Below, piece by piece: positions 24,602-36,862 of a stretch of 37,130 nucleotides of DNA. Numbering within the stretch: the first letter of the stretch is position 1; each line of letters starts with the position of its first letter. The stretch comes from a virus. Location of the stretch: positions 1 through 37,130 of IMG/VR virus record IMGVR_UViG_3300023219_000132, one strand, 5' to 3'. The notes below the pieces were generated by a model. The model ran no database searches. It worked only from the letters and a program-made list of their open reading frames with translations, and had not been told where the DNA came from. Both the position numbers and the translations under genes were made by a program.

Positions 24602-25348
24602 ATGAAAAAGCCATTACCTGCTGATCGCGCTGAAGAATGCCAAAGACTCAAGGCGATCTTCGACGGCAAAAAAAAAGAGCTGAAGCTCACTCAAGAGAAG
24701 CTTGCGCACCGCTTGGGTATCAACCAGAGCTCTGTTAGCCATTATTTGAACGGCGTGAACCCACTGAACGCCCCAGTAGCCGCAGCCTTCGCCAAAAGTC
24801 TTGGGGTACCTGTTAGGGATTTCAGCCCCCGCCTTGCGGACGTGATTGAGTCCTTTGCGGATGACTTCAAGGAAACCTGGTCTCGCAGCGCCAAGGTATT
24901 GGATGCCGTACCTCACGAACAGTACGTGCTCATTCCTCAGCTTTTGGACGATAACTCATTTGTTCCTGGGGTAAACGATGAGCACGTAGGGCTTACTGAG
25001 GGAATGTTGTTCCGCCGCGGCTGGCTTAGAGACATGGGCCTTCATTACCCTCACCTCAGAATCTTGTACGTTACAGACGACAGCATGGCTCCACATATCG
25101 CTCGCGAGGACGTGGTCATGATCGACACATTCAAGAAGATACTTGAGGATGGAAAGATTTTTTTAATCAGGCGTCCTGATGGGAAGACCAGCATCCGCAG
25201 GGTCTTCCAAATGATTGCCGGCGGCTGGGCACTGAGGTGTGACAACCTGGATAAACAGAGGTATCCAGATGAGACGCTTAGCAGTGAGGCTGCCGATAGG
25301 CTTCCTGTCGTAGGCCAGATAGCCTGGCGCGGAGGAAGCTCCAGATGA
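24602..25348 (+). CDS. cI: CI-like prophage repressor (HTH + S24-like domain)
   Basis: This protein of 248 residues has an N-terminal HTH (about 28-52: LTQEKLAHRLGINQSSVSHY) and a C-terminal S24/LexA-like domain (about 150-245). The nucleophile-type Ser161 is in TDDSMAPHI (usual GDSM, here DDSM). The lysine that completes the catalytic dyad is expected in the TSIRRVF strand but is Arg there (199/200), and no Ala-Gly or Cys-Gly cleavage pair is visible in the linker. The domain may serve only for dimerisation. ATG 24602 was chosen because pRM would start transcription there. An in-frame GTG at 24596 is the alternative. It keeps both early promoters off in the lysogen. Confidence 0.9.
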   Translation: MKKPLPADRAEECQRLKAIFDGKKKELKLTQEKLAHRLGINQSSVSHYLNGVNPLNAPVAAAFAKSLGVPVRDFSPRLADVIESFADDFKETWSRSAKVLDAVPHEQYVLIPQLLDDNSFVPGVNDEHVGLTEGMLFRRGWLRDMGLHYPHLRILYVTDDSMAPHIAREDVVMIDTFKKILEDGKIFLIRRPDGKTSIRRVFQMIAGGWALRCDNLDKQRYPDETLSSEAADRLPVVGQIAWRGGSSR

Positions 25349-25370
25349 CTATGCCAATAGGGCCACACTG

Positions 25371-25395
25371 AAACCGCTTTCGAGCGGTTTTTTTT
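25371..25395 (+). terminator. Intrinsic terminator after cI
   Basis: An 8-bp stem AAACCGCT/AGCGGTTT with TTCG loop is followed by eight T on the + strand, 23 nt after the cI stop. Confidence 0.9.
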
Positions 25396-25412
25396 CGCGC
25401 CACCAAATAAAT

Positions 25413-25427
25413 ATTACCAAAAGCATT
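25413..25427. promoter_or_regulatory. Operator OL-a
   Basis: ATTACCAAAAGCATT is a copy of the same dyad seen on the cro side, overlapping the -35 of the pL-like promoter. Confidence 0.65.
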
Positions 25428-25454
25428 TACACAATAAATTGCCTTTGGTAATTT
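25426..25454 (+). promoter_or_regulatory. pL-like promoter for the + strand early operon
   Basis: -35 TTTACA (25426-25431), a 17-bp spacer and -10 TAATTT (25449-25454) lie 35 nt before the ATG of the HTH gene. Both boxes are overlapped by operators. Confidence 0.75.
25438..25452. promoter_or_regulatory. Operator OL-b
   Basis: ATTGCCTTTGGTAAT is the best operator in the window: perfect ATTRCC/GGYAAT halves around TTT. It is 25 bp from OL-a, the same spacing as O1-O2. Confidence 0.8.
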
Positions 25455-25488
25455 TATCTCCATCGACTCGTCGCATGGAGCACCTCGC

Positions 25489-25878
25489 ATGACCACTCAG
25501 ACCATCACCGTCAGCGGCTGGACCGGTTTTCTCGGCATGGGGCTTGCTCCGCGTGAGCTTGAGGCGACGCTGCATGCAGCCAGCGACCTGACCCAGAAAG
25601 AGATTGCACGCCTGATGGGGATCAGCCCCAAGACCGTTGAAAAGCGCATCGAGGACGCCCGATTCAAGCTCGGTGCCAAAACCATGCGTGGTCTGGTCCT
25701 TGAGGCGTTCAAGCGCCAAATAATTACCCCATCGGTCATGGCCCTGATAGCGCTGCTGACCACTCATGCAGTGATCGGTGAAGACCACATGCTTCGCGTC
25801 CGGCGCAGCGGTAACGGCGGTGAGCGCCGGGTCGAGCTTCGTGTTGCGGCGCGGCGGGTCGAGCAGCAGGTGGCGTAG
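25489..25878 (+). CDS. LuxR/GerE-type HTH protein, first gene of pL operon
   Basis: This protein of 129 residues has GGAG 9 nt before the ATG. It carries a GerE-type helix-turn-helix (about 20-70: LAPRELEATLHAASDLTQKE, then IARLMGISPKTVEKRIEDAR and FKLGAKTMRGLV), with no receiver or ligand domain. A hydrophobic stretch (SVMALIALLTTHAVIG, about 82-97) follows, then a basic tail (RVRRSGNGGERRVELRV). Similar HTH proteins occur early in Pseudomonas phages. It may regulate early transcription, in the place of lambda N, but sequence does not show antitermination. Confidence 0.8.
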   Translation: MTTQTITVSGWTGFLGMGLAPRELEATLHAASDLTQKEIARLMGISPKTVEKRIEDARFKLGAKTMRGLVLEAFKRQIITPSVMALIALLTTHAVIGEDHMLRVRRSGNGGERRVELRVAARRVEQQVA

Positions 25879-25886
25879 CAGCGGCG

Positions 25887-26640
25887 AGGGTTTTCCGATT
25901 TCAGATCGGAGAACCCTGTCCGGTGCAAGAGCACTGTATGGCCGGGTTAGGCGTGGCGCGGCCCGGCGAGGCAAGGATAGGCCAGGCGAGGGCTGTAATC
26001 AGCGGCGAGTCCGTTCACAGAGCGGGCTTTCCGGTGGCTTCAGTCACCAAGAGGCACGGCATTGCGGGGCAGGCATGGGTGTGGTTTGGCTGGGTATGGC
26101 GTGGCAGGGGCTGACAACAGCGTAATGCCGATTGGCAACAGTCGGTATTGCGGTGTGAAAACACCACACGGCCAGGTTTGGCGAGGCACGTCCTGGCAAG
26201 GCACGCCGAGGCGAGGCAAGGGCTACAACGTAGCGGCCAGCATCTTCGCAGAGGGTGCTTTCCGGTACCGAGTACCACGAGGCAGTGCGAGGCGAGGCTT
26301 GGCGCGGTCGGGCAGAGCGCGGCATGGGCTGATTCAGCGTTCAGCCACTTCGCAAGAGGTGGTTGAACGGTGCGAAAGCATCACGCGGCATAGCTCGGTT
26401 CGGCTTGGCATGGCCGGGCATGGTGTGGTTCGGTCCGGTATGGCAGGGGCTGCTGGTCAGCGTAATGGCCTTTCATTGAGAGGTCATTACGGTGCGAAAG
26501 CGCTATCCGGTAAGGCACTGCTCGGTGCGGCTGGGCACGGCAGGTTAGGGCGGGGTCGGGCAAGGGCGGTAATCCGCACGGGGTCACCAGCGTATCTGGT
26601 GACAACTTGAAAGCATCTTCAATAAGGATGTTTTCAAGTT
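25887..26640 (+). ncRNA. Candidate large structured RNA of repeated hairpin modules
   Basis: This ~750-nt stretch has no credible gene. Type-A hairpins sit at 25887-25917, 26008-26028, 26124-26149, 26239-26259, 26338-26369, 26462-26490 and 26604-26640. Their stems differ in sequence yet pair, and four have the loop TTCNNNNAG (TTCACAGAG, TTCGCAGAG, TTCATTGAG, TTCAATAAG). A type-B hairpin follows the first six (for example GGTGT-GAAA-ACACC 26152-26165, GGTAC-CGA-GTACC 26264-26276, GGTGC-GAAA-GCATC 26369-26382). A small type-C stem joins each pentamer array to the next A hairpin (GCTG/CAGC, GCTA/TAGC, GCG/CGC). Changes on both sides of stems point to selection for pairing. Orientation + is assumed because pL reads through. 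Cas7/RAMP-like and partner genes follow directly. The function is unknown. Confidence 0.6.
25940..26570. repeat. Six arrays of GGNNN pentamers (period 5)
   Basis: Between the hairpin clusters lie arrays at about 25940-25994, 26052-26112, 26170-26224, 26280-26330, 26387-26451 and 26508-26570. In them GG recurs every 5 nt with few phase breaks. In 25940-25994 all 11 successive pentamers begin GG. In 26387-26451 12 of 13 do. The third base is mostly C or T and the last two vary. Most arrays end in GGGCT. A 5-nt period cannot be codon-driven. Confidence 0.85.
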
Positions 26641-26708
26641 CATCAACGCAAGCAAAGTGCATCGCACAGGGCGAACTCGCACACGCAGCGAAACTAAGAG
26701 GAACCACC

Positions 26709-27275
26709 ATGCAAGTTTTGAAAGTTAAAATCATTGGCACCCGTCCGCTTTTGGTCCATAGCGACGTGTTTGCTGACCCGTTGAATAAGTTGACCAAAGC
26801 GCACAAGCAATTGACCGCGAAGCGCAAAAAGTCTGACGAAGACCATGAGCTTATTGCTCGAAGCGAATGGCGCGGTGGACTTTATTTTGATGAATCCATC
26901 GGCCCCTTCTTGCCCGGTATCAATATTGAGTCCGCACTTGTGGCGGGCGGCAAACTTTCGAAAATGGGAACCCAGCTCAAGCGCTCCGTCGAGATCATGG
27001 ATACCCGCTGCCCGATCATTTACGAAGGCCCGCGCACTGTCGAAGGCCTGTGGGATGAGCAGTTTTACGATGCCCGCTCCGTCAAGGTCGGCACTGCCCG
27101 AATCACGCGATATCGCCCCCTCTTCCGCTCCTGGGCCGTGGTCTGCGAGATCGCCTACGATCAAGAATCCATCGACCGTGACCAGGTGCTGAAATGCCTG
27201 GAGGACGCCGGCCAGTACTGTGGTGTCGGTGACTACCGCCCGAAATTCGGCCGCTTCGCCGTGGAGGTGCTGTGA
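26709..27275 (+). CDS. Cas7/RAMP-like single-domain protein
   Basis: This protein of 188 residues starts at ATG 26709, with AGAGGA 7 nt upstream. Three segments look like the RAMP (Cas7-type) fold: an opening strand and loop VKIIGTRPLLVHSD (about 6-19), FLPGINIESALVAGGK (about 67-82; RAMPs have IPGSSLKGALR), and a C-terminal Gly-rich loop GVGDYRPKFGRFAVEVL (about 172-188; RAMPs have G.G...GFG). No nuclease residues are obvious. Similar phage proteins exist as unnamed hypotheticals. There are no cas genes nearby. It sits directly after the structured repeat region and overlaps the next gene by 1 nt, so the pair is probably a functional unit. RNA binding is inferred from fold only. Confidence 0.6.
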   Translation: MQVLKVKIIGTRPLLVHSDVFADPLNKLTKAHKQLTAKRKKSDEDHELIARSEWRGGLYFDESIGPFLPGINIESALVAGGKLSKMGTQLKRSVEIMDTRCPIIYEGPRTVEGLWDEQFYDARSVKVGTARITRYRPLFRSWAVVCEIAYDQESIDRDQVLKCLEDAGQYCGVGDYRPKFGRFAVEVL

Positions 27276-27754
27276 TGCCTGTAGTTCCGCTCAAGCCGAA
27301 CAGCTGGAGCCTGGACAAGGCCATCGAGCAGTTCCTGGCTGACAAGTTCGAAGACGGCCAGCTCATAAGCCACGCCTGGTTGGAGTGGGCACTCAACCTG
27401 CCGAAGCCAAGCACCGCGAAGGAAATGGTCAACTGTCAGTTCGTGATTCTTGACCGCGTCGAGCAGTTCAAAGAAGCCCTGCTGACTCAGCATCAAATCT
27501 ACATCGTTAGCGTGCGCGGCAAAGGTTACCGGATCGTCCCGCCAAGCGATCAAGCATTCATCGCTGTCGACAACGCCATGCAAGGAGTTCGTCGGGAGTT
27601 CAGCAAGTGCGAGAAGGTCATGAAGAATACTCGACTTGGCGAACTTGATGCCGACCAGATTAAGCGTCATACCGATGCGCAACTGAAAGTATCTGCGATC
27701 GCCGGAATGGTAGGAAAAGGAAAGCGCGAAGTATTCAGCCTGTTCAAGGCATAA
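27275..27754 (+). CDS. Partner protein of the RAMP-like gene, unknown function
   Basis: This protein of 159 residues starts at ATG 27275, sharing one base with the upstream stop (TGATG), with GGAGG 7 nt before it. The N-terminal half is helical (LDKAIEQFLADKFEDGQLIS). In the middle a strand motif reads IYIVSVRGKGYRIVPPSDQA, and the C-terminal part is helical and basic (LKVSAIAGMVGKGKREVFSL). The GYxIVPPxxQ segment recurs in phage proteins I have seen next to the RAMP-like family, so the pair appears conserved. No catalytic motif is seen. Confidence 0.65.
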   Translation: MPVVPLKPNSWSLDKAIEQFLADKFEDGQLISHAWLEWALNLPKPSTAKEMVNCQFVILDRVEQFKEALLTQHQIYIVSVRGKGYRIVPPSDQAFIAVDNAMQGVRREFSKCEKVMKNTRLGELDADQIKRHTDAQLKVSAIAGMVGKGKREVFSLFKA

Positions 27755-27839
27755 CTTCGCCCAAGTAACACCAACAACTTCTATCGAAAGCCAAGTTACT
27801 CGGCGGGTACTCGCTCGTCTTCAATATGGAGATTCAAAC

Positions 27840-28235
27840 ATGCTCATGCTCAGCCGCAACATCGGAAAGGCCGTCATCATCGGCGGCAACATCCGGGTCA
27901 CTGTGGCCCATGTAGACGGCTGCCAGGTTCGCCTCGGCATCGAGGCCCCGCGCGGGGTGATCGTTGACCGCGAAGAGATCCACGCCCGCCGCGTGGCTGA
28001 AGGTGCCGTCGAGGAAGCGCCAGCGTTCAGCATCGACGAGCACGTCAAGCTGGTGGCTGATGCCCGCCGGTACCGGTGGCTGCGTGACCGCGAGCGTATC
28101 GAAGATCCCGACGAAGACCTGCTGGTGGTGCGCGGCGACAGCTGGCTCTCTGCTGGAGAGCTGGATCAGGAGATCGACACCGCCCTGCGCCTGGAAGCCT
28201 TGCAACAACAGGTGTTGCTGGAGCAGCAGTCATGA
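27840..28235 (+). CDS. Phage CsrA/RsmA domain fused to a C-terminal extension
   Basis: This protein of 131 residues has GGAG 9 nt before the ATG. Residues 1-50 are a CsrA domain (MLMLSRNIGKAVIIGGNIRV, then VRLGIEAPRGVIVDREEIHA) with the RNA-contacting L4, R6 and R44 present; the usual His43 is Asp. Residues about 65-131 are a separate helical module (LVADARRYRWLRDRERIEDP, LSAGELDQEIDTALRLEALQ) common at the ends of phage proteins. CsrA proteins bind GGA-containing hairpins and block translation. A phage copy could alter host Rsm control. This fusion is about twice the length of host CsrA. Confidence 0.85.
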   Translation: MLMLSRNIGKAVIIGGNIRVTVAHVDGCQVRLGIEAPRGVIVDREEIHARRVAEGAVEEAPAFSIDEHVKLVADARRYRWLRDRERIEDPDEDLLVVRGDSWLSAGELDQEIDTALRLEALQQQVLLEQQS

Positions 28236-28375
28236 GCCAGGCCGGCCTGCTCTTGCTGCTGTGGGATGCCCTGCAGCAGCGCCAAACCACCTTCGGCCAA
28301 ATCGCTGACTTGTCCGCCGCGTGCGGCCTGGACGGGCGCCGGGTGCTGGCCGATCACTTTCGGGGGATAGCATGA
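28232..28375 (+). CDS. Small hypothetical phage protein
   Basis: This protein of 47 residues starts at ATG 28232, overlapping the CsrA-fusion stop by 4 nt, and its own stop overlaps the next start (ATGA). It starts MSQAGLLLLLWDALQQRQTT, with a short Leu-rich helix, and continues FGQIADLSAACGLDGRRVLA. Coupling at both ends supports translation. The function is unknown. Confidence 0.6.
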   Translation: MSQAGLLLLLWDALQQRQTTFGQIADLSAACGLDGRRVLADHFRGIA

Positions 28376-29166
28376 TCAATTTGACCGACAACCTGGCGCA
28401 CCGCGCCCTCTTCACCCTGCCGCCGATCCGTCCGAGCGCAGAGTCTGCGCCAGCAGTCCGGGCTCTGCCCGAGCAGAAGGTCGTCACAGGCGACAAGGAA
28501 GTGGATGCTGTCCTGTGGCTGCGCGACGTAATCAAGACGGGTCAGGCCGGAGCTGTTGCCACTGCTCTGGAAGCAGCCAAGAAGATCAAGACGCCGCTCA
28601 AGGAGGTCGAGCAGCGGTATGTCGACTATGTGAAGCGCACCAGCGGAAACAACCCCTTTGCGGTGATGTTTTCGTACGGGTTTGCGGATCTTGAAGGGCT
28701 GGCCAAGGGTTCGCTGGAGAAGGCGGCCCTGGCATCCGAGGCGCGGGCCCGATTCGAGGGCGAGACGATCTTCGAAGATACGCCCGCCGAGCAGTTCTGC
28801 GAGAAGGCCTTGAAACGCTGCAAGGGCTTCAAAAGCTACTTCGAAAACGACAAGACCCAGGTGGCCAAGCGTTTCCGCAAGCACGCCGATCTGATGCCAA
28901 GCACCCTCGATGACTGCCTGTACGAGATTGCGTACTGGGGCCGGCTGTATGTCTTGCGCCACGCTGCCGGCGAGTGGGGTGATGGGATGCATGAGGCTAT
29001 CGCGCGCGAATGGTTTGTCCAGGGGCTGCTTTCGGAGATCAAGCCGCGCGACGAGGCCGAGGCTCTGCGCGTTCTGGATTACGCCGCACAGTCCGAGAGC
29101 ATTGAGCATGACGGCATGGTGGCCATTGCACGAAACCTCATCGCCTCGGGAGGACTGCCGGCATGA
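28372..29166 (+). CDS. Hypothetical phage protein
   Basis: This protein of 264 residues starts at ATG 28372 (MINLTDNLAHRALFTLPPIR), overlapping the upstream stop by 4 nt. It is soluble and mostly helical, with ERARFEG-like charged stretches and KALKRCKGFKSYFENDKTQV in the middle, and EIAYWGRLYVLRHAAGEWGD towards the end. I know the general type from the early region of Pseudomonas phages but no function. The start was chosen by overlap; the in-frame codons before it overlap the previous gene. Confidence 0.7.
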   Translation: MINLTDNLAHRALFTLPPIRPSAESAPAVRALPEQKVVTGDKEVDAVLWLRDVIKTGQAGAVATALEAAKKIKTPLKEVEQRYVDYVKRTSGNNPFAVMFSYGFADLEGLAKGSLEKAALASEARARFEGETIFEDTPAEQFCEKALKRCKGFKSYFENDKTQVAKRFRKHADLMPSTLDDCLYEIAYWGRLYVLRHAAGEWGDGMHEAIAREWFVQGLLSEIKPRDEAEALRVLDYAAQSESIEHDGMVAIARNLIASGGLPA

Positions 29167-29941: not shown

Positions 29942-30286
29942 ATGGCAGCAGCAGAGAATATGCCCGACGACCATGTGCACGACAAGGTCACCGAGAAACG
30001 GATGGGCGAGTTGGTGGGGTGTACAGCGAAGGCGCTTCAACGAAAGCGTGAGAAAGGCATCATCCCCAACTGGGTGTGGATGAAGATCAACGGCAGGATC
30101 ATGTACAGCAAAAGGAGATATGACGAATGGATCGAAAGCCTATGGACCTGCCGGCCGGAGTCGAGCTTGTCGGGCGCTCAATCCGAATTCGCTTCACCTG
30201 GAACAAGAAGCGGTGCTGCGAGACGCTCCCCCTCCCTCAGACCCCGAAAGGGATCGCAGCAGCAGCGAATCTACGTGCTCAAGTAA
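29942..30286 (+). CDS. xis: Excisionase-like protein
   Basis: This protein of 114 residues has AGGAGG 7 nt upstream. The first ~65 residues form a winged-helix Xis pattern (KVTEKRMGELVGCTAKALQR, then KREKGIIPNWVWMKINGRIM and YSKRRYDEWIESLW). The C-terminal ~50 residues are encoded by DNA shared with the integrase start in another frame and are basic/low-complexity. It is expected to direct the integrase towards excision. The 160-bp overlap with int is longer than in lambda but the same arrangement. Confidence 0.75.
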   Translation: MAAAENMPDDHVHDKVTEKRMGELVGCTAKALQRKREKGIIPNWVWMKINGRIMYSKRRYDEWIESLWTCRPESSLSGAQSEFASPGTRSGAARRSPSLRPRKGSQQQRIYVLK

Positions 30287-31317
30287 AGGGGCTGGACAAG
30301 CTCGGCGCGCTGACGACAGAGAAGTACGCCGAGCTGTTTCCCAATACGCGCAGCGTGGTGGTTCAGGAGCAAACTACCCCGATCTTCTTTGATTACGCGC
30401 AGGACTGGCTGAACAGCTTGCAGATCGTGGAAGGTACTCGGAAGAACTACCGCTCTGCCCTGCAGGTGTATTGGGTTCCGTACCTGGCCGAGAAGCCGAT
30501 CGACACCATCACGTCAGTGCACTTGCGCAAGATCATGAACGACATCAAGTGGACCTCTCCGATACGCCGCAAGGGCGTGGTCGGCCTGCTGGTGTCGATC
30601 TTCCAGCAGGCGGTGACGGACGAGTTGATCGTTCGAAACCCGGCCCTGTCTATCCCGGGCGCCAAAGTGCCGAAGCGTGAGGTCGACCCTTTCACCAAAG
30701 AGGAAGCGGATTCGATCATTGCCCATCTTTACGAAACGACGAGCGGTTTGACGGCAATTTACGCGGCGTATTTCGAGTTATGTTTCTACACCGGTATGCG
30801 GCCTGGCGAGGTGATGGCTCTGCGCTGGAGCGAGATCGACAGGCGTGGAAAGACCGCCAACGTGTGCCGCATTCAGATCCGTGGAGTGATCCAGGATCGC
30901 ACCAAAACGAAGCGCGGCCGGAAAGTTTTATTGAACGATCGCGCCCTGCATGCGCTCGAAAAAGCCAGGCCGCTCACCGAGGCGCGTTCAGATTACGTGT
31001 TCGCACCCAGTGGGACGGGTGACCGTTCGGAGATGTTCATCCGCTCCGAGACGAGTCAAAAACGTTACTGGCTGGCAGCTCTGCGGAAGCTTGGCATCAG
31101 GCGCCGCAGGATGTACGACACGCGCCACACGTACGCGACCATGTGCCTGATGGCCGGCATGAACCCGGCATTCATCGCCGCGCAACTCGGGCATAGCGTG
31201 CAGGTGCTGCTTTCTACATACGCGAAGTGGATCAACTCGCCGAATGATTGGGCTGAGCTTGATAAGCTGAAATCGCTGGAAAGTGGTACAAAAATGGTAC
31301 GAGCTAAAAGCCAGTAA
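30127..31317 (+). CDS. int: Tyrosine site-specific integrase
   Basis: This protein of 396 residues has AGGAG 10 nt before ATG 30127. An arm-type DNA-binding domain (about 1-60, VGRSIRIRFTWNKKRCCETL) is followed by a SAM-like core-binding domain (about 80-170) and a catalytic domain. Catalytic residues seen are Arg in YTGMRPGEVMALRW (about 224), His and Arg in MYDTRHTYATM (about 330), His in AAQLGHSVQVLL (about 355), and Tyr in LSTYAKW (about 363). It integrates and excises the prophage. As the last phage gene it marks the attachment end next to the host NAGGN operon. Confidence 0.96.
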   Translation: MDRKPMDLPAGVELVGRSIRIRFTWNKKRCCETLPLPQTPKGIAAAANLRAQVKGLDKLGALTTEKYAELFPNTRSVVVQEQTTPIFFDYAQDWLNSLQIVEGTRKNYRSALQVYWVPYLAEKPIDTITSVHLRKIMNDIKWTSPIRRKGVVGLLVSIFQQAVTDELIVRNPALSIPGAKVPKREVDPFTKEEADSIIAHLYETTSGLTAIYAAYFELCFYTGMRPGEVMALRWSEIDRRGKTANVCRIQIRGVIQDRTKTKRGRKVLLNDRALHALEKARPLTEARSDYVFAPSGTGDRSEMFIRSETSQKRYWLAALRKLGIRRRRMYDTRHTYATMCLMAGMNPAFIAAQLGHSVQVLLSTYAKWINSPNDWAELDKLKSLESGTKMVRAKSQ

Positions 31318-31353: not shown

Positions 31354-33141
31354 ATGTGCGGATTAGCAGGAGAGTTGCGTTTCACCCCTATCGACCAAGC
31401 CCCTCGCCCAGCCGACCTGGCTGCGGTAGAGCGCATCACCCATCACCTGGCGCCACGCGGCCCGGATGCGTGGGGCTTCCATAGCCAAGGCCCGATTGCC
31501 CTTGGCCACCGGCGCCTGAAAATCATGGACTTGTCCGATGGCTCGGCGCAGCCGATGGTCGACAACACCCTGGGCTTGTCACTGGCTTTCAACGGTGCCA
31601 TCTACAACTTCCCCGAACTGCGCCAGGAACTGCAAGACCTGGGCTACAGCTTCTGGTCCGACGGCGATACCGAGGTGCTGCTCAAGGGCTACCACGCCTG
31701 GGGCGCGGCACTGCTGCCCAAGCTCAACGGCATGTTTGCCCTGGCCATCTGGGAGCGCGATAACCAGCGCCTGTTCCTGGCCCGCGACCGCCTCGGCGTG
31801 AAGCCCTTGTACCTGTCGCGCAACGGCGAGCGCCTGCGCTTTGCCTCTACCCTGCCGGCGCTGCTCAAGGGCGGCGACATCGACCCGATGCTCGACCCGG
31901 TGGCGCTCAACCACTACCTGAACTTCCACGCCGTGGTGCCAGCACCGCGCACCCTGCTGGCCAACGTGCAAAAGCTGGAACCCGGCACCTGGATGCGCAT
32001 TGACCGGCATGGCGAAGTAGAGCGCCAGACCTGGTGGCAACTGCAATACGGCGCCAACCCGGACGAGCGCGATCTCGACCTGGAAGGCTGGACCACCCGC
32101 GTGCTCGACGCCACCCGTGACGCCGTGGCCATTCGCCAACGGGCTGCCGTCGACGTGGGTGTGTTGCTGTCCGGCGGGGTCGATTCCAGCCTGCTGGTGG
32201 GCCTGTTGCGCGAAGTGGGCGTGGACGACCTGTCGACCTTCTCCATCGGCTTCGAGGACGCCGGCGGCGAGCGCGGCGACGAGTTCCAGTATTCCGACCT
32301 GATCGCCAAGCACTACGGCACCCGCCATCACCAACTGCGCATTGCCGAACACGAAATCATCGACCAGTTGCCGGCCGCGTTCCGCGCCATGAGCGAGCCG
32401 ATGGTCAGCCACGACTGCATCGCCTTCTACCTGCTGTCGCGGGAAGTGGCCAAGCACTGCAAAGGCGTGCAGAGCGGCCAGGGCGCGGACGAACTGTTCG
32501 CCGGTTACCACTGGTACCCGCAGGTGGCCGGCGCCGAGGATGCCTTTGCCGCCTACCGCGACGCCTTCTTCGACCGCAGCCATGCCGAGTACCGCGATAC
32601 CGTACAGGCCCCTTGGCTGTTGGAAACCGACGCCGCCGGTGACTTCGTGCGCGAGCACTTCGCCCGCCCCGGCGCACGGGACGCGGTGGACAAGGCCTTG
32701 CGCCTGGACAGCACGGTGATGCTGGTCGACGACCCGGTCAAACGGGTGGACAACATGACCATGGCCTGGGGCCTCGAAGCACGCACGCCATTCCTCGACT
32801 ACCGCCTGGTGGAACTGTCGGCACGCATCCCGGCGCGCTTCAAGCTGCCCGACGGCGGCAAGCAGGTGCTCAAGCAGGCAGCACGGCGGGTGATCCCGCA
32901 CGAGGTAATCGACCGCAAAAAGGGCTACTTCCCGGTGCCGGGCCTGAAACACCTGGAAGGTGCCACCCTGGGCTGGGTGCGTGAGCTGCTGACCGACCCC
33001 AGCCAGGACCGTGGGCTGTTCAACCCGGCCATGCTCGACCGCCTGCTGAGCAACCCCCATGGCCAGCTGACACCGCTGCGCGGCTCCAAGCTGTGGCAGC
33101 TGGCGGCGCTGAACCTGTGGCTGAGCGAACAAGGAATCTGA
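31354..33141 (+). CDS. asnO: N-acetylglutaminylglutamine amidotransferase
   Basis: This protein of 595 residues is of the asparagine-synthetase type. The N-terminal class II glutamine amidotransferase domain has Cys2 as nucleophile (MCGLAGELRF) and RGPDAWGFHSQGPIALGHRR. The C-terminal synthetase domain has the PP-loop VLLSGGVDSSLLVGLL (about 269-284) and SGQGADELFAGYHWY. It amidates N-acetylglutaminylglutamine to NAGGN, a cytoplasmic compatible solute made under osmotic stress. The next two genes complete the three-gene cluster. The prophage lies immediately upstream, so its native promoter may be displaced. Confidence 0.93.
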   Translation: MCGLAGELRFTPIDQAPRPADLAAVERITHHLAPRGPDAWGFHSQGPIALGHRRLKIMDLSDGSAQPMVDNTLGLSLAFNGAIYNFPELRQELQDLGYSFWSDGDTEVLLKGYHAWGAALLPKLNGMFALAIWERDNQRLFLARDRLGVKPLYLSRNGERLRFASTLPALLKGGDIDPMLDPVALNHYLNFHAVVPAPRTLLANVQKLEPGTWMRIDRHGEVERQTWWQLQYGANPDERDLDLEGWTTRVLDATRDAVAIRQRAAVDVGVLLSGGVDSSLLVGLLREVGVDDLSTFSIGFEDAGGERGDEFQYSDLIAKHYGTRHHQLRIAEHEIIDQLPAAFRAMSEPMVSHDCIAFYLLSREVAKHCKGVQSGQGADELFAGYHWYPQVAGAEDAFAAYRDAFFDRSHAEYRDTVQAPWLLETDAAGDFVREHFARPGARDAVDKALRLDSTVMLVDDPVKRVDNMTMAWGLEARTPFLDYRLVELSARIPARFKLPDGGKQVLKQAARRVIPHEVIDRKKGYFPVPGLKHLEGATLGWVRELLTDPSQDRGLFNPAMLDRLLSNPHGQLTPLRGSKLWQLAALNLWLSEQGI

Positions 33142-33144
33142 CCG

Positions 33145-34890
33145 ATGAAAGCCCATGAAATCGCTTACGGGCAGCGCCTGCTGCGCGGCCAGGCGCCGTC
33201 CTATGAGCGCCTGCAGGCGCGCCTGGCCGGCGACGGCAGCCAGCCCCACGACCAGCCGCGAGCCGTGCACTGCGGCTGGGGCCGGCTGCTGATCGGCCAC
33301 ACCTACCCCGACCCGGTTTCGCTGGCCGAGGACTTGCTCGACGAATGCCCCGGCGAGCGCGATATCGCCCTGTACGTGGCCGCGCCCCAGCAATTGCTGG
33401 CCCAGGCCCCACAGCAGTTGTTCCTGGACCCGTCCGACACCTTGCGCCTGTGGTTCACCGACTACCGCCCGGCGCAGCGGGTGTTCCGCGGCTTCCGCGT
33501 GCGCCGGGCGCAGAACCCCGCCGACTGGCAGGCGATCAACACCCTGTACCAGGCACGCAGCATGCTGCCGGTGGACGCCGAACTACTGACCCCTCGGCAC
33601 CTGGGCGGCCCGGTGTACTGGCTGGCCGAAGACGAAGACAGCGGCGCTGTGATCGGCAGCGTCATGGGCCTGAACCACGCCAAGGCGTTCGATGACCCTG
33701 AGCATGGCAGCAGCCTGTGGTGCCTGGCCGTGGACCCGCACTGCACCCGCCCAGGCGTGGGTGAGGTGCTGGTGCGCCACCTGATCGAGCACTTCATGAG
33801 CCGGGGCCTGGCCTACCTCGACCTGTCGGTGCTGCACGACAACCGCCAGGCCAAGCGCCTGTACCAGAAGCTGGGCTTTCGCAACCTGCCCACCTTTGCG
33901 GTCAAGCGCAAAAATGGCATCAACGAGCAGTTGTTCCTCGGGCCCGGGCCGCAAGCCGACCTTAACCCCTATGCCCGCATCATCGTCGACGAGGCGTTGC
34001 GCCGGGGCATCGAAGTACAGGTGGATGACGCCGCTGGCGGCCTGTTCACGCTGAGCCTGGGTGGGCGGCGCATTCGCTGCCGTGAATCGCTCAGCGACCT
34101 GACCAGTGCCGTGACCATGACCCTGTGCCAAGACAAGCGCCTGACCCAGCACGCCCTGCACAACGCTGGGCTGCAGGTGCCGGCGCAGCAACTGGCGGGC
34201 AATGCCGACGACAACCTGGCGTTTCTCGACGAGCATGGCGCAGTCGTGGTCAAGCCGGTCGACGGTGAGCAAGGCCAGGGCGTGGCGGTGAACCTGACCT
34301 GCATCGACGACATCACCCGCGCCGTGGCGCACGCCCGCCAGTTCGACAGCCGCGTGTTGCTGGAAAGCTTCCATGCCGGCTTCGACCTGCGCATCGTGGT
34401 GATCGGCTACGAAGTGGTGGCCGCCGCCATCCGTCACCCGGCGCAGGTGCTGGGCGATGGCAAGCACAGTGTGCGCCAGTTGATCGAGGCCCAGAGCCGC
34501 CGGCGCCAGGCCGCCACCAGTGGCGAAAGCCGCATCCCGCTGGACGACGAAACCGAGCGCACCTTGCGCGCGGCGGGCTTGGGCTATGACGACGTGCTGC
34601 CTGCCGGCCAGCGTCTGGCCGTGCGGCGCACCGCCAATCTGCACACCGGCGGCACCCTGGAAGACGTCACCGAGCGCCTGCACCCGGTACTGGCCGACGC
34701 TGCTGTGCGCGCTGCTCGGGCGCTGGAAATTCCGGTGGTGGGGCTGGACTTCATGGTGCGTGACGCCGGGCAGCCGGAGTACGTGATCATCGAGGCCAAC
34801 GAACGTGCCGGCCTGGCCAACCATGAACCGCAGCCAACGGCCGAGCGCTTTATCGACTTGCTGTTTCCGCATAGCCGACCTTTGGCCTGA
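33145..34890 (+). CDS. ngs: N-acetylglutaminylglutamine synthetase
   Basis: This two-domain protein has 581 residues. The N-terminal GNAT acetyltransferase (about 110-275) contains LWCLAVDPHCTRPGVGEVLV (acetyl-CoA site) and HDNRQAKRLYQKLGFRN. The C-terminal ATP-grasp ligase (about 300-575) contains HGAVVVKPVDGEQGQGVAVN and the metal site VIIEANERAGLANHE. It makes acetylated Gln-Gln, the substrate of the preceding amidotransferase. It starts 3 nt after the asnO stop, so the two are co-transcribed. Confidence 0.93.
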   Translation: MKAHEIAYGQRLLRGQAPSYERLQARLAGDGSQPHDQPRAVHCGWGRLLIGHTYPDPVSLAEDLLDECPGERDIALYVAAPQQLLAQAPQQLFLDPSDTLRLWFTDYRPAQRVFRGFRVRRAQNPADWQAINTLYQARSMLPVDAELLTPRHLGGPVYWLAEDEDSGAVIGSVMGLNHAKAFDDPEHGSSLWCLAVDPHCTRPGVGEVLVRHLIEHFMSRGLAYLDLSVLHDNRQAKRLYQKLGFRNLPTFAVKRKNGINEQLFLGPGPQADLNPYARIIVDEALRRGIEVQVDDAAGGLFTLSLGGRRIRCRESLSDLTSAVTMTLCQDKRLTQHALHNAGLQVPAQQLAGNADDNLAFLDEHGAVVVKPVDGEQGQGVAVNLTCIDDITRAVAHARQFDSRVLLESFHAGFDLRIVVIGYEVVAAAIRHPAQVLGDGKHSVRQLIEAQSRRRQAATSGESRIPLDDETERTLRAAGLGYDDVLPAGQRLAVRRTANLHTGGTLEDVTERLHPVLADAAVRAARALEIPVVGLDFMVRDAGQPEYVIIEANERAGLANHEPQPTAERFIDLLFPHSRPLA

Positions 34891-34904
34891 CAACTGCTCG
34901 GCGT

Positions 34905-35025
34905 TTTGTAGGAGCGGCCTTGTGTCGCGAAAGGGCCGCAAAGCGGCCCCAGCAATCTAAGCAGCGAAGCTGAAATCCTGGGGGCGCTTCGCACCCCTTT
35001 CGCGACACAAGGCCGCTCCTACAAA
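34905..35025. repeat. REP-like inverted pair (BIME)
   Basis: A 31-bp sequence (34905-34935) is repeated as its exact reverse complement at 34995-35025. It contains TGTAGGAGCGGCCTTGTGTC, the P. putida-type REP pattern. A small GGGCCGC-AAA-GCGGCCC hairpin follows the first copy. The pair lies between the synthetase and peptidase genes of the NAGGN operon and may stabilise or separate the mRNA. Confidence 0.85.
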
Positions 35026-35070
35026 GACCGCGCCACAGCCTGGAATATCAACCCGACCGGAGGCCTGGAC

Positions 35071-36255
35071 ATGTCCGAACGACTCCCCGAACCCGATCTC
35101 GACTACCTCAAACGTGTGCTCCTGGAAATGCTCGCCATCCCCAGCCCCACCGGGTTCACCGATACCATCGTGCGCTACGTTGCCGAACGCCTGGACGAAC
35201 TGGGCATCCCCTTCGAGCTGACCCGCCGTGGCACCATCCGCGCCACCCTCAAGGGCCGGCAAACTTCACCCGACCGGGCCGTGTCCGCCCACCTCGACAC
35301 CATCGGCGCCAGTGTGCGCCAGCTGCAGGACAACGGCCGCCTGGCCCTGGCGCCAGTGGGTTGCTGGTCCAGCCGCTTCGCCGAAGGCAGTCGCGTCAGC
35401 GTGTTCACCGATACCGGGGTGTTCCGCGGCAGCGTTCTGCCGCTGATGGCCAGCGGGCATGCCTTCAACACCGCCATCGACCAGATGCCTATCAGCTGGG
35501 ATCATGTGGAAGTACGCCTGGACGCCTACTGCGCCACCCGCGCCGACTGCGAGGCACTGGGCGTGAGCATCGGTGACTTCGTGGCCTTCGACCCTTTGCC
35601 CGAGTTCACCGAAAGCGGCCACATCAGCGCCCGCCATCTGGACGACAAGGCTGGCGTAGCCGCATTGCTGGCAGCATTGAAGGCCGTGGTGGAAAGCGGC
35701 CGGCAACCTTTGATCGATTGCCACCCGCTGTTCACCATCACCGAAGAAACCGGCTCAGGGGCAGCCGGTGCCCTGCCTTGGGACGTCAGCGAGTTCGTCG
35801 GCATCGACATCGCCCCGGTGGCGCCCGGGCAGGCGTCCAGCGAGCATGCCGTGAGCGTGGCCATGCAGGACTCGTCGGGGCCTTACGACTACCACCTGTC
35901 CCGGCACCTGTTGAAACTGGCCGGCGACCACGACTTGCCCGTGCGGCGTGACCTGTTCCGCTATTACTTCAGCGACGCCCATTCGGCCGTGACGGCGGGG
36001 CACGATATTCGCACTGCGCTGGTGGCGTTTGGCTGCGATGCCACCCATGGGTACGAGCGTACCCATATCGACAGCCTGGCAGCGCTGAGCCGGTTGTTGT
36101 CGGCGTACCTGTTGAGCCCACCGGTGTTCGCCAGCGATTCGCAACCGGCCAATGCGTCGCTTGAACGCTTCAGCCATCAGCTGGAGCATGATGCGCAGAT
36201 GGAGAGCGATACGCGGGTGCCGACGGTGGATAGCCTGGTTGGCAATAAAGGCTGA
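35071..36255 (+). CDS. M42-family peptidase of the NAGGN cluster
   Basis: This protein of 394 residues has GGAGG 8 nt before ATG 35071. The metal and catalytic residues of M42/M18-M20-type peptidases are in place: VSAHLDTIGA, SARHLDDKAGVAALL, TITEETGSGAAGALP, VGIDIAP, and a late DATHGYERTHIDSLAAL. It is the third gene of the conserved NAGGN trio (osmoprotectant-system M42 peptidase) and may process or recycle the peptide. The REP pair separates it from the two biosynthetic genes. Confidence 0.9.
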   Translation: MSERLPEPDLDYLKRVLLEMLAIPSPTGFTDTIVRYVAERLDELGIPFELTRRGTIRATLKGRQTSPDRAVSAHLDTIGASVRQLQDNGRLALAPVGCWSSRFAEGSRVSVFTDTGVFRGSVLPLMASGHAFNTAIDQMPISWDHVEVRLDAYCATRADCEALGVSIGDFVAFDPLPEFTESGHISARHLDDKAGVAALLAALKAVVESGRQPLIDCHPLFTITEETGSGAAGALPWDVSEFVGIDIAPVAPGQASSEHAVSVAMQDSSGPYDYHLSRHLLKLAGDHDLPVRRDLFRYYFSDAHSAVTAGHDIRTALVAFGCDATHGYERTHIDSLAALSRLLSAYLLSPPVFASDSQPANASLERFSHQLEHDAQMESDTRVPTVDSLVGNKG

Positions 36256-36261
36256 AGGCCC

Positions 36262-36282
36262 TGGGGCTGTTATGCAGCCCCA
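36262..36282 (+). terminator. Hairpin after NAGGN operon
   Basis: TGGGGCTG-TTATG-CAGCCCCA is an 8-bp perfect stem 6 nt beyond the peptidase stop. It is followed by AAACTCG rather than a T-run, so it is at best a weak terminator or an mRNA-stabilising hairpin. Confidence 0.4.
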
Positions 36283-36335
36283 AAACTCGAATGTTTCGCG
36301 TAGCATGGCCACACCTACTTCAGACACCACCCACC

Positions 36336-36563
36336 ATGCTGATCCCCTACGAGCAACTGCAAGCCGAAACCCTGACCCGCCTGATCGAGGACTTCGTCAC
36401 CCGCGACGGCACCGACAACGGCGACGACACCCCGCTGGAAACCCGTGTGCTGCGGGTGCGCCAGGCCCTGGCCAAAGGCCAGGCGTTCATCCTGTTCGAC
36501 CCGGAAAGCCAGCAGTGCCAGTTGCTGGCCAAGCACGATGTGCCCCGTGAGCTGCTCGACTAG
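36336..36563 (+). CDS. yheU: YheU-family protein
   Basis: This protein of 75 residues starts MLIPYEQLQAETLTRLIEDF, then VTRDGTDNGDDTPLETRVLR and VRQALAKGQAFILFDPESQQ. This closely follows the UPF0270/YheU family, whose biochemical role is unknown. It is host chromosomal. Its TAG stop overlaps the stop of the opposite-strand csrA paralogue in a shared CTAG. Confidence 0.92.
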   Translation: MLIPYEQLQAETLTRLIEDFVTRDGTDNGDDTPLETRVLRVRQALAKGQAFILFDPESQQCQLLAKHDVPRELLD

Positions 36564-36742
36564 CAGCTCTTGCCTTGTTTGGCCTCCTGGATGCGCTTGT
36601 ATACCTCGGCCCGATGCACCGGGACCTCGCGCGGCGCATCCACGCCAAAGCGCACCACCCCCTCACGGGTTTCCACCACCCTGATGCGAATATCATCGCC
36701 AATCACGATGGTCTCACCCACTTCGCGTCCTATTACCAGCAT
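36560..36742 (-). CDS. rsmI: CsrA/RsmA-family translational regulator (RsmI-type)
   Basis: This protein of 60 residues starts at ATG 36742 (MLVIGREVGETIVIGDDIRI), then VVRFGVDAPREVPVHRAEVY. The RNA-binding R6 and R44 and the VHRAE motif are present. MLVIGREVGE differs from the standard RsmA opening (MLILTRR) and matches the third Pseudomonas paralogue, RsmI, so the gene name is a likely but not certain identification. It represses mRNAs with GGA hairpins. A phage-borne CsrA fusion lies 8 kb away. Confidence 0.85.
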   Translation of the reverse strand: MLVIGREVGETIVIGDDIRIRVVETREGVVRFGVDAPREVPVHRAEVYKRIQEAKQGKSC

Positions 36743-36862
36743 GGTCCGGTCCTCCACCGAAAGGGAAAACCGGAGCCTGCCGTGTCGGCATTCCCCTACT
36801 CAATAGCTCTGCAGTGAATCAGAAGAACCCTACTCCGCCAGGTAAAATCTCCTACAGATTAT

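What the first reader, a model, noticed from the sequence alone, without database searches (positions are those of the whole stretch)
25887..26640. Large modular hairpin array, candidate new structured RNA
Seen directly: seven type-A hairpins whose stems have unrelated sequences but pair fully (6-14 bp). Four share the 9-nt loop TTCNNNNAG and the other three have shorter or looser loops. A type-B hairpin (GGTGN with GAAA, TTCA, AAGA or CGA loop) follows six of them, and a short type-C stem varies in a compensating way (GCTG/CAGC, GCTA/TAGC, GCG/CGC). Module spacing is about 100-140 nt. Conserved loops with covarying stems are what selection on RNA structure looks like. It is transcribed from the pL-like promoter if the operon is continuous. 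I know of no named RNA with this layout, but cannot search.
Basis: partly seen in the sequence, partly recalled or inferred. Interest (0 to 1): 0.93.

Follow-up and report, generated by a model that had tools for sequence, protein, structure and literature searches.

The report
Phage guide-RNA array against rival phages
The hairpin array is the scaffold around six guide RNAs of a recently described phage system called VIPR, and reading its code shows a Pseudomonas prophage carrying guides against rival phages and probable phage satellites, including the same weapon in its rivals.

Summary
Seven A hairpins, the B hairpins and the compensating C stems are at 25886-26641, fold far better than shuffles (z -9.7), and covary strongly across related phages. 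The next gene (26709-27275) encodes a RAMP protein 46% identical to SUSP1 Vipr. This is a VIPR (Viral Interference Programmable Repeat) system, described in a 2026 preprint (PMC13142463), so the kind is known and this is a new member.

I tested the reported code independently (NN dinucleotides paired, one target base skipped). With 86 guides from related loci, one-base skip gave 143 guide-target pairs at up to 3 mismatches; skips 0 and 2 gave 3 and 2, permuted guides 0-7. Exact IMG/VR matches fall in one homologous site per guide: a conserved gene start (T1, 10/10), an ORF6N antirepressor (T2, 3/3), a capsid gene in 10-13 kb elements (T3, 3/3), one ORF of satellite-like elements (T4, 14/14), phage csrA (T5, 32/32), rival vipr (T6, 10/10). 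The phage's own vipr has 3 mismatches to its anti-vipr guide. The A hairpins flank every guide (n+1), probably as processing or insulating elements. Expression and repression were not tested.

The parts
25886..25918 (+). hairpin A1, before the first guide tract; no C stem on its 5' side
   Evidence: (I1); weak model hit 25871-25939
25922..25935 (+). hairpin B1 (GGTGC-AAGA-GCACT)
   Evidence: sequence
25938..25992 (+). guide tract T1, 11 pentamers: AT CG TA GT GC CC GA AA TA CA (GA)
   Evidence: exact 1-skip matches at one homologous gene start in 10/10 viral contigs
25990..26049 (+). tail stem C + hairpin A2 + hairpin B2
   Evidence: model R1 63.4 bits; covariation
26051..26110 (+). guide tract T2, 12 pentamers: (GA) AC AT GG AG TG GT TT TG AT GT (AG)
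   Evidence: 3/3 exact matches in an ORF6N antirepressor-like gene
26108..26169 (+). tail stem C + hairpin A3 + hairpin B3
   Evidence: 56.8 bits
26168..26222 (+). guide tract T3, 11 pentamers: AC CA TT GA AC CT AA AC GA GA (AA)
   Evidence: 3/3 exact matches in an HK97-type major capsid gene of 10-13 kb elements
26220..26280 (+). tail stem C (GCTA/TAGC) + hairpin A4 + hairpin B4
   Evidence: 61.5 bits
26279..26328 (+). guide tract T4, 10 pentamers: GA AG GA GA TT GC CG AG GC (AT)
   Evidence: 14/14 exact matches at one homologous ORF of related elements
26326..26386 (+). tail stem C + hairpin A5 + hairpin B5
   Evidence: 60.4 bits
26385..26449 (+). guide tract T5, 13 pentamers: (GC) AT TC TC TT AT CG AT GT TC CC (AT AG)
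   Evidence: 32/32 exact matches in phage csrA genes
26447..26508 (+). tail stem C + hairpin A6 + hairpin B6
   Evidence: 61.2 bits
26507..26566 (+). guide tract T6, 12 pentamers: (CC) AA AC TC GC TG AC AG AG GG CG (AA)
   Evidence: 10/10 exact matches in vipr genes of related phages; own vipr has 3 mismatches
26564..26577 (+). last tail stem C (GCGG/CCGC)
26583..26603 (+). terminal hairpin D (GTCACCAG/CTGGTGAC)
26603..26641 (+). terminal hairpin A7, after the last guide (n+1)
   Evidence: (I6); weak model hit 26609-26635
26709..27275 (+). vipr gene: RAMP protein, 188 aa (phrog_4652)
   Evidence: 46% identity to SUSP1 Vipr over its length; PDB 36PP 'SUSP1 Vipr protein' E 1e-57; model resembles Csm3/Cas7
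27272..27754 (+). probable vap gene, 160 aa (phrog_5926)
   Evidence: 28% identity to the SUSP1 gene directly after vipr

Best explanation
The region is the guide-RNA array of a VIPR system (SUSP1 / P. fulva-like clade) in a Pseudomonas prophage. It is predicted to be transcribed as a precursor and cut into six vrRNAs. Each vrRNA carries an NNGGY tract and a 3' tail stem (C), and is bounded by A hairpins on both sides. Vipr subunits coat the tract, holding the GGY triplets and leaving each NN free to pair with DNA, one target base being skipped per repeat. The RNP then blocks transcription of the matched gene. The six guides are aimed at competing mobile elements: a conserved gene start (T1), an antirepressor (T2), a capsid gene (T3), an ORF of satellite-like elements (T4), phage csrA (T5) and the vipr gene of rival phages (T6). 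Shown here by sequence: anatomy, covariation, the Vipr homolog, the code and the targets. Reported in the preprint for relatives: transcription, RNP formation, DNA binding, repression. Inferred here: expression, processing at the A hairpins, repression of these targets.
For: Six tracts of 10-13 NNGGY pentamers, none in 500 shuffles or elsewhere in the window. Downstream RAMP protein 46% identical to SUSP1 Vipr, matching PDB 36PP, with a predicted fold like Csm3/Cas7. The same kind of array lies upstream of vipr in most relatives, and NNGGY tracts flank it in E. coli phages. One-base skip: 143 unique guide-target pairs at <=3 mismatches, against 3 (skip 0), 2 (skip 2) and 0-7 (permuted). Every exact IMG/VR match of each of the six guides falls at one homologous site or gene: 10/10, 3/3, 3/3, 14/14, 32/32, 10/10. 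Targets identified by families. Self-sparing of vipr (3 and 6 mismatches for two arrays). A T2 variant in another array matches the target variant exactly.
Against: No transcript, RNP or repression data for this phage. No clear sigma-70-like promoter on the + strand in 25340-27800. The first NN of T2, T5 and T6 and the last NN of most guides do not match the targets, so guide ends are uncertain. The covariance model of the Pseudomonas modules does not find the E. coli phage modules, so the scaffold is clade-specific.
Confidence: 0.93

Rival explanations
1. A new structured RNA whose function lies in the hairpins themselves (a scaffold or decoy RNA, or a regulator of the downstream operon), the pentamers being linkers.
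For: Strong folding and covariation of the hairpins; no Rfam match.
Against: The pentamer NN letters, not the hairpins, specify consistent exact targets in rival elements under a fixed skip rule; the next gene is a Vipr homolog.
Confidence: 0.03
2. A CRISPR array or a degenerate relative of one.
For: RAMP-type protein next to a modular array with variable parts; n+1 hairpins around n variable tracts.
Against: No constant repeat, no contiguous spacer, none of the neighbouring genes tested is a cas gene; zero-skip (contiguous) matches are at background.
Confidence: 0.01
3. A DNA-level element: an iteron-like origin, a recombination site, or a G-quadruplex / ring-protein (TRAP-like) binding array.
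For: Period-5 GG repeats could form two-tier quadruplexes or bind a ring protein; the modules occur in different combinations in different phages.
Against: One strand only; NN letters are specified and track target variants; Vipr homolog adjacent.
Confidence: 0.01
4. VIPR array, but a decayed or unexpressed one.
For: Several pentamers in T2-T4 depart from GGY (e.g. ATTGC, AGGCA, ACGTC).
Against: Intact vipr and vap frames, stems intact, exact matches for all six guides in present-day elements.
Confidence: 0.05

Closest known systems
VIPR of Escherichia phage SUSP1 (PMC13142463; KT454805; PDB 36PP)
   Same: Vipr 46% identical over its length, a gene after vipr 28% identical, NNGGY tracts, stem-loop tail, A-type hairpins with a TCTTCNNNGAGG-like tip.
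   Different: SUSP1 has one vrRNA before and three after the genes; here six lie upstream. The tail is a plain GCTG/CAGC stem, with no SUSP1-type pseudoknot seen; stems differ in sequence.
VIPR of the Pseudomonas fulva prophage clade (PMC13142463)
   Same: Pseudomonas prophage; many targets are lysogeny regulators of other prophages and rival VIPR systems, as found here.
   Different: No accession was available to me to compare directly. Here csrA and two kinds of satellite-like element are also targeted; I cannot tell whether those are in the preprint's supplementary data.
Class 1 CRISPR RAMPs (Csm3/Cas7)
   Same: Predicted Vipr fold matches Csm3 and type VII Cas7 chains.
   Different: About 12% identity, no CRISPR repeats, no contiguous guide, no cas genes alongside.

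Membership tests
VIPR | Vipr: small (~20 kD) RAMP homolog | tested here: met
VIPR | vrRNA tracts of 9-16 alternating GGY/NN repeats | tested here: met
   six tracts of 10-13 units
VIPR | structured 3' tail after each tract | tested here: met
   stem C after every tract, absent before the first; paired in 100% of cells, one pair with compensating change
VIPR | accessory gene (vap) next to vipr | tested here: met
   27272-27754, 28% identical to the SUSP1 neighbour
VIPR | targets follow the one-base skip rule | tested here: met
VIPR | vrRNA transcription and co-purification with Vipr | not testable with these tools
   needs sRNA-seq and pull-down
VIPR | target repression | not testable with these tools
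   needs a reporter assay
CRISPR-Cas class 1 | constant repeats with contiguous spacers | tested here: not met
   zero-skip matches at background; hairpin stems differ within the array
CRISPR-Cas class 1 | cas genes nearby | tested here: not met
   the neighbouring proteins tested have no Cas family match
Known Rfam RNA | match above a family's gathering score | tested here: not met

The most novel reading that the evidence does not exclude
The A hairpins are a separate, position-specific processing and insulation element of VIPR arrays: one more hairpin than guides, with stems kept different from each other within an array (4 same-family pairs of 76 against 15 expected). Such arrays in Pseudomonas prophages combine anti-vipr, anti-regulator, anti-CsrA and anti-satellite guides, and solo vrRNAs in vipr-less phages may work in trans or as decoys.
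Probability: 0.35. Interest if true: 0.65.

Novelty: new member of a known kind. Interest (0 to 1): 0.58.

Why it matters
It gives independent sequence support, from data gathered here, for the non-contiguous VIPR code, and a fully read array in which every guide has an exact target. It shows a prophage carrying guides against the same weapon in its rivals while its own copy carries mismatches, and guides against satellite-like elements and phage CsrA. These targets are ready for reporter tests in laboratory E. coli.

Tried and rejected
Rfam at two thresholds: nothing credible. tRNA search: none. Blastn of the array against phages: mostly GGC-rich chance or short matches, but it led to the solo vrRNAs of P. 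aeruginosa phages. Ideas of a TRAP-like or G-quadruplex array were dropped once the NN letters were shown to specify targets. Contiguous reading of NN (skip 0) and skip 2 gave only background. Pfam and NCBIfam do not know Vipr or Vap, and PADLOC gives only one marginal, unconvincing hit for Vap. The AlphaFold model from 16 similar sequences is only moderate (pLDDT 69), so the fold match is supporting, not decisive; the PDB sequence match decides. The SUSP1-type pseudoknot was not found by eye in the Pseudomonas tail. A search of Pseudomonas genomes with one guide failed for lack of a genome handle and was not repeated.

Full report
WHAT IS THERE. It folds far better than shuffles. Between the hairpins lie six tracts of 10-13 pentamers NNGGY in one register each. 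They are on the + strand only and occur nowhere else in the 37 kb; no shuffle of the region has even one.

RELATIVES. The next gene (26709-27275, phrog_4652) has relatives in 23 viral contigs, nearly all with the same kind of array just upstream. From these and other loci I read 96 tracts. Felix O1-like phages of E. coli carry the same gene with NNGGY tracts and similar hairpins. Across 32 distinct internal modules from the Pseudomonas-type relatives the C and A stems covary: 92% of cells paired, 12 of 17 pairs changed on both sides, covariation score 0.47 against 0.16 shuffled and at most 0.10 slid.

WHAT IT IS. A literature search found one paper describing alternating GGY/NN RNAs: the VIPR preprint (PMC13142463, read). 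It reports a phage RAMP protein (Vipr) with guide RNAs (vrRNAs) whose NN dinucleotides pair with DNA with one target base skipped, causing transcriptional repression, mostly of competing mobile elements. The window's protein is 46% identical to the SUSP1 gene in the expected place, matches the solved SUSP1 Vipr (36PP), and its model resembles Csm3/Cas7. The following gene matches the SUSP1 neighbour at 28%.

TEST OF THE CODE. I scanned all loci then held with 86 guides (last unit dropped). One-base skip gave 143 unique guide-target pairs at up to three mismatches, from 36 guides. Skip 0 gave 3, skip 2 gave 2, and ten permutations of the dinucleotide order gave 0-7. Skip 3 is the tracts matching themselves. 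I then searched IMG/VR for exact one-skip matches of each window guide (the first unit dropped for T2, T5 and T6). All matches of one guide fall at one homologous site: T1, a conserved gene start preceded by an AGGAG-type ribosome-binding site (10 of 10); T2, an ORF6N antirepressor-like gene (3 of 3); T3, an HK97-type major capsid gene in 10-13 kb elements, of which the one examined carries integrase, portal, terminase and adaptor genes (3 of 3); T4, one ORF without family match in related elements, of which the one examined carries integrase, AAA and capsid genes (14 of 14 at the same place by context); T5, phage csrA around GETIRINDDI (32 of 32); T6, vipr near its start (10 of 10). In T2-T6 the skipped base sits at the codon wobble position or in a frame compatible with it in the listed target ORFs; in T1 it does not. 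Calling the T3 and T4 elements satellites is an inference from size and gene content.

SELF-SPARING AND TRACKING. T6 has 3 mismatches to the window's own vipr and none to ten other copies; a vipr-directed guide in another array (L003) has 6 to its own and 0-2 to most others. T5 has 4 mismatches to the csrA at 36560-36757, which lies in the host flank, and the prophage's own csrA-like gene (27840-28235) lacks the motif. A T2 variant in L005 (AC AC GG...) matches exactly the target variant that the window's T2 (AC AT GG...) misses by one letter, and the reverse holds too.

HAIRPINS. The first A hairpin has no C stem before it, and every tract is followed by a C stem, so C belongs to the tract upstream (its tail). 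A hairpins number one more than tracts in the window (7 for 6), and other arrays show the same layout where my hairpin finder detected them. Within an array two A hairpins rarely belong to the same stem family (4 of 76 pairs, 15.1 expected, sd 3.5), though families also keep an order along the array, so common descent by position explains part of this. I infer that A hairpins are processing or insulating elements; this was not tested. Single-module folds alternate between three separate hairpins (C, A, B) and one long concentric hairpin (the consensus fold prefers the latter around A), so the exact pairing of C and B in the precursor is open.

LIMITS. No expression data. The promoter is unidentified. 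Guide ends are uncertain by one unit on each side. The IMG/VR searches lack a matched permuted control; the control is the scan. The preprint's supplements could not be read, so this particular array may already be in its tables.

VERDICT. Real, structured, and explained: a VIPR guide array, a new member of a kind first described in 2026.

Noticed in passing
L052:3456-3662 (MK510964) and about 25 similar P. aeruginosa phage records: A LuxR-type gene followed by one complete vrRNA unit (18 repeats in L052, flanked by two A hairpins) in phages with no Vipr found by tblastn. Possibly a trans-acting, decoy or remnant guide.
   Followed up: partly
window 31354-36757: Host chromosome flank: N-acetylglutaminylglutamine amidotransferase and synthetase genes, an M42 peptidase and a csrA on the minus strand; the prophage edge lies near the integrase at 30127-31317.
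   Followed up: partly
window 28321-29166 and L061:3413-4324: The same unknown family (phrog_6204) is found in this VIPR phage and in one of the elements that its guide T3 targets.
   Followed up: no
L053:2372-2661 (Mycobacterium phage Donkeykong): Five nearly continuous GGC-pentamer tracts inside the annotated gene 48; may be a staggered VIPR-like array mis-annotated as protein.
   Followed up: no
L055:1640-1760 (Gordonia phage MakoManhole): A pentamer tract before a Vipr relative follows a hairpin that resembles a tRNA T arm (GTGGGGTTCGACTCCCCAC).
   Followed up: no
window 25489-25878: A LuxR/sigma-region-4-like gene (phrog_3282) ends directly at the start of the array, and a similar gene sits before the array in most relatives; it may regulate the array.
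   Followed up: no
window 27840-28235: The VIPR prophage carries its own csrA-like gene while its guide T5 targets csrA genes of other phages.
   Followed up: partly
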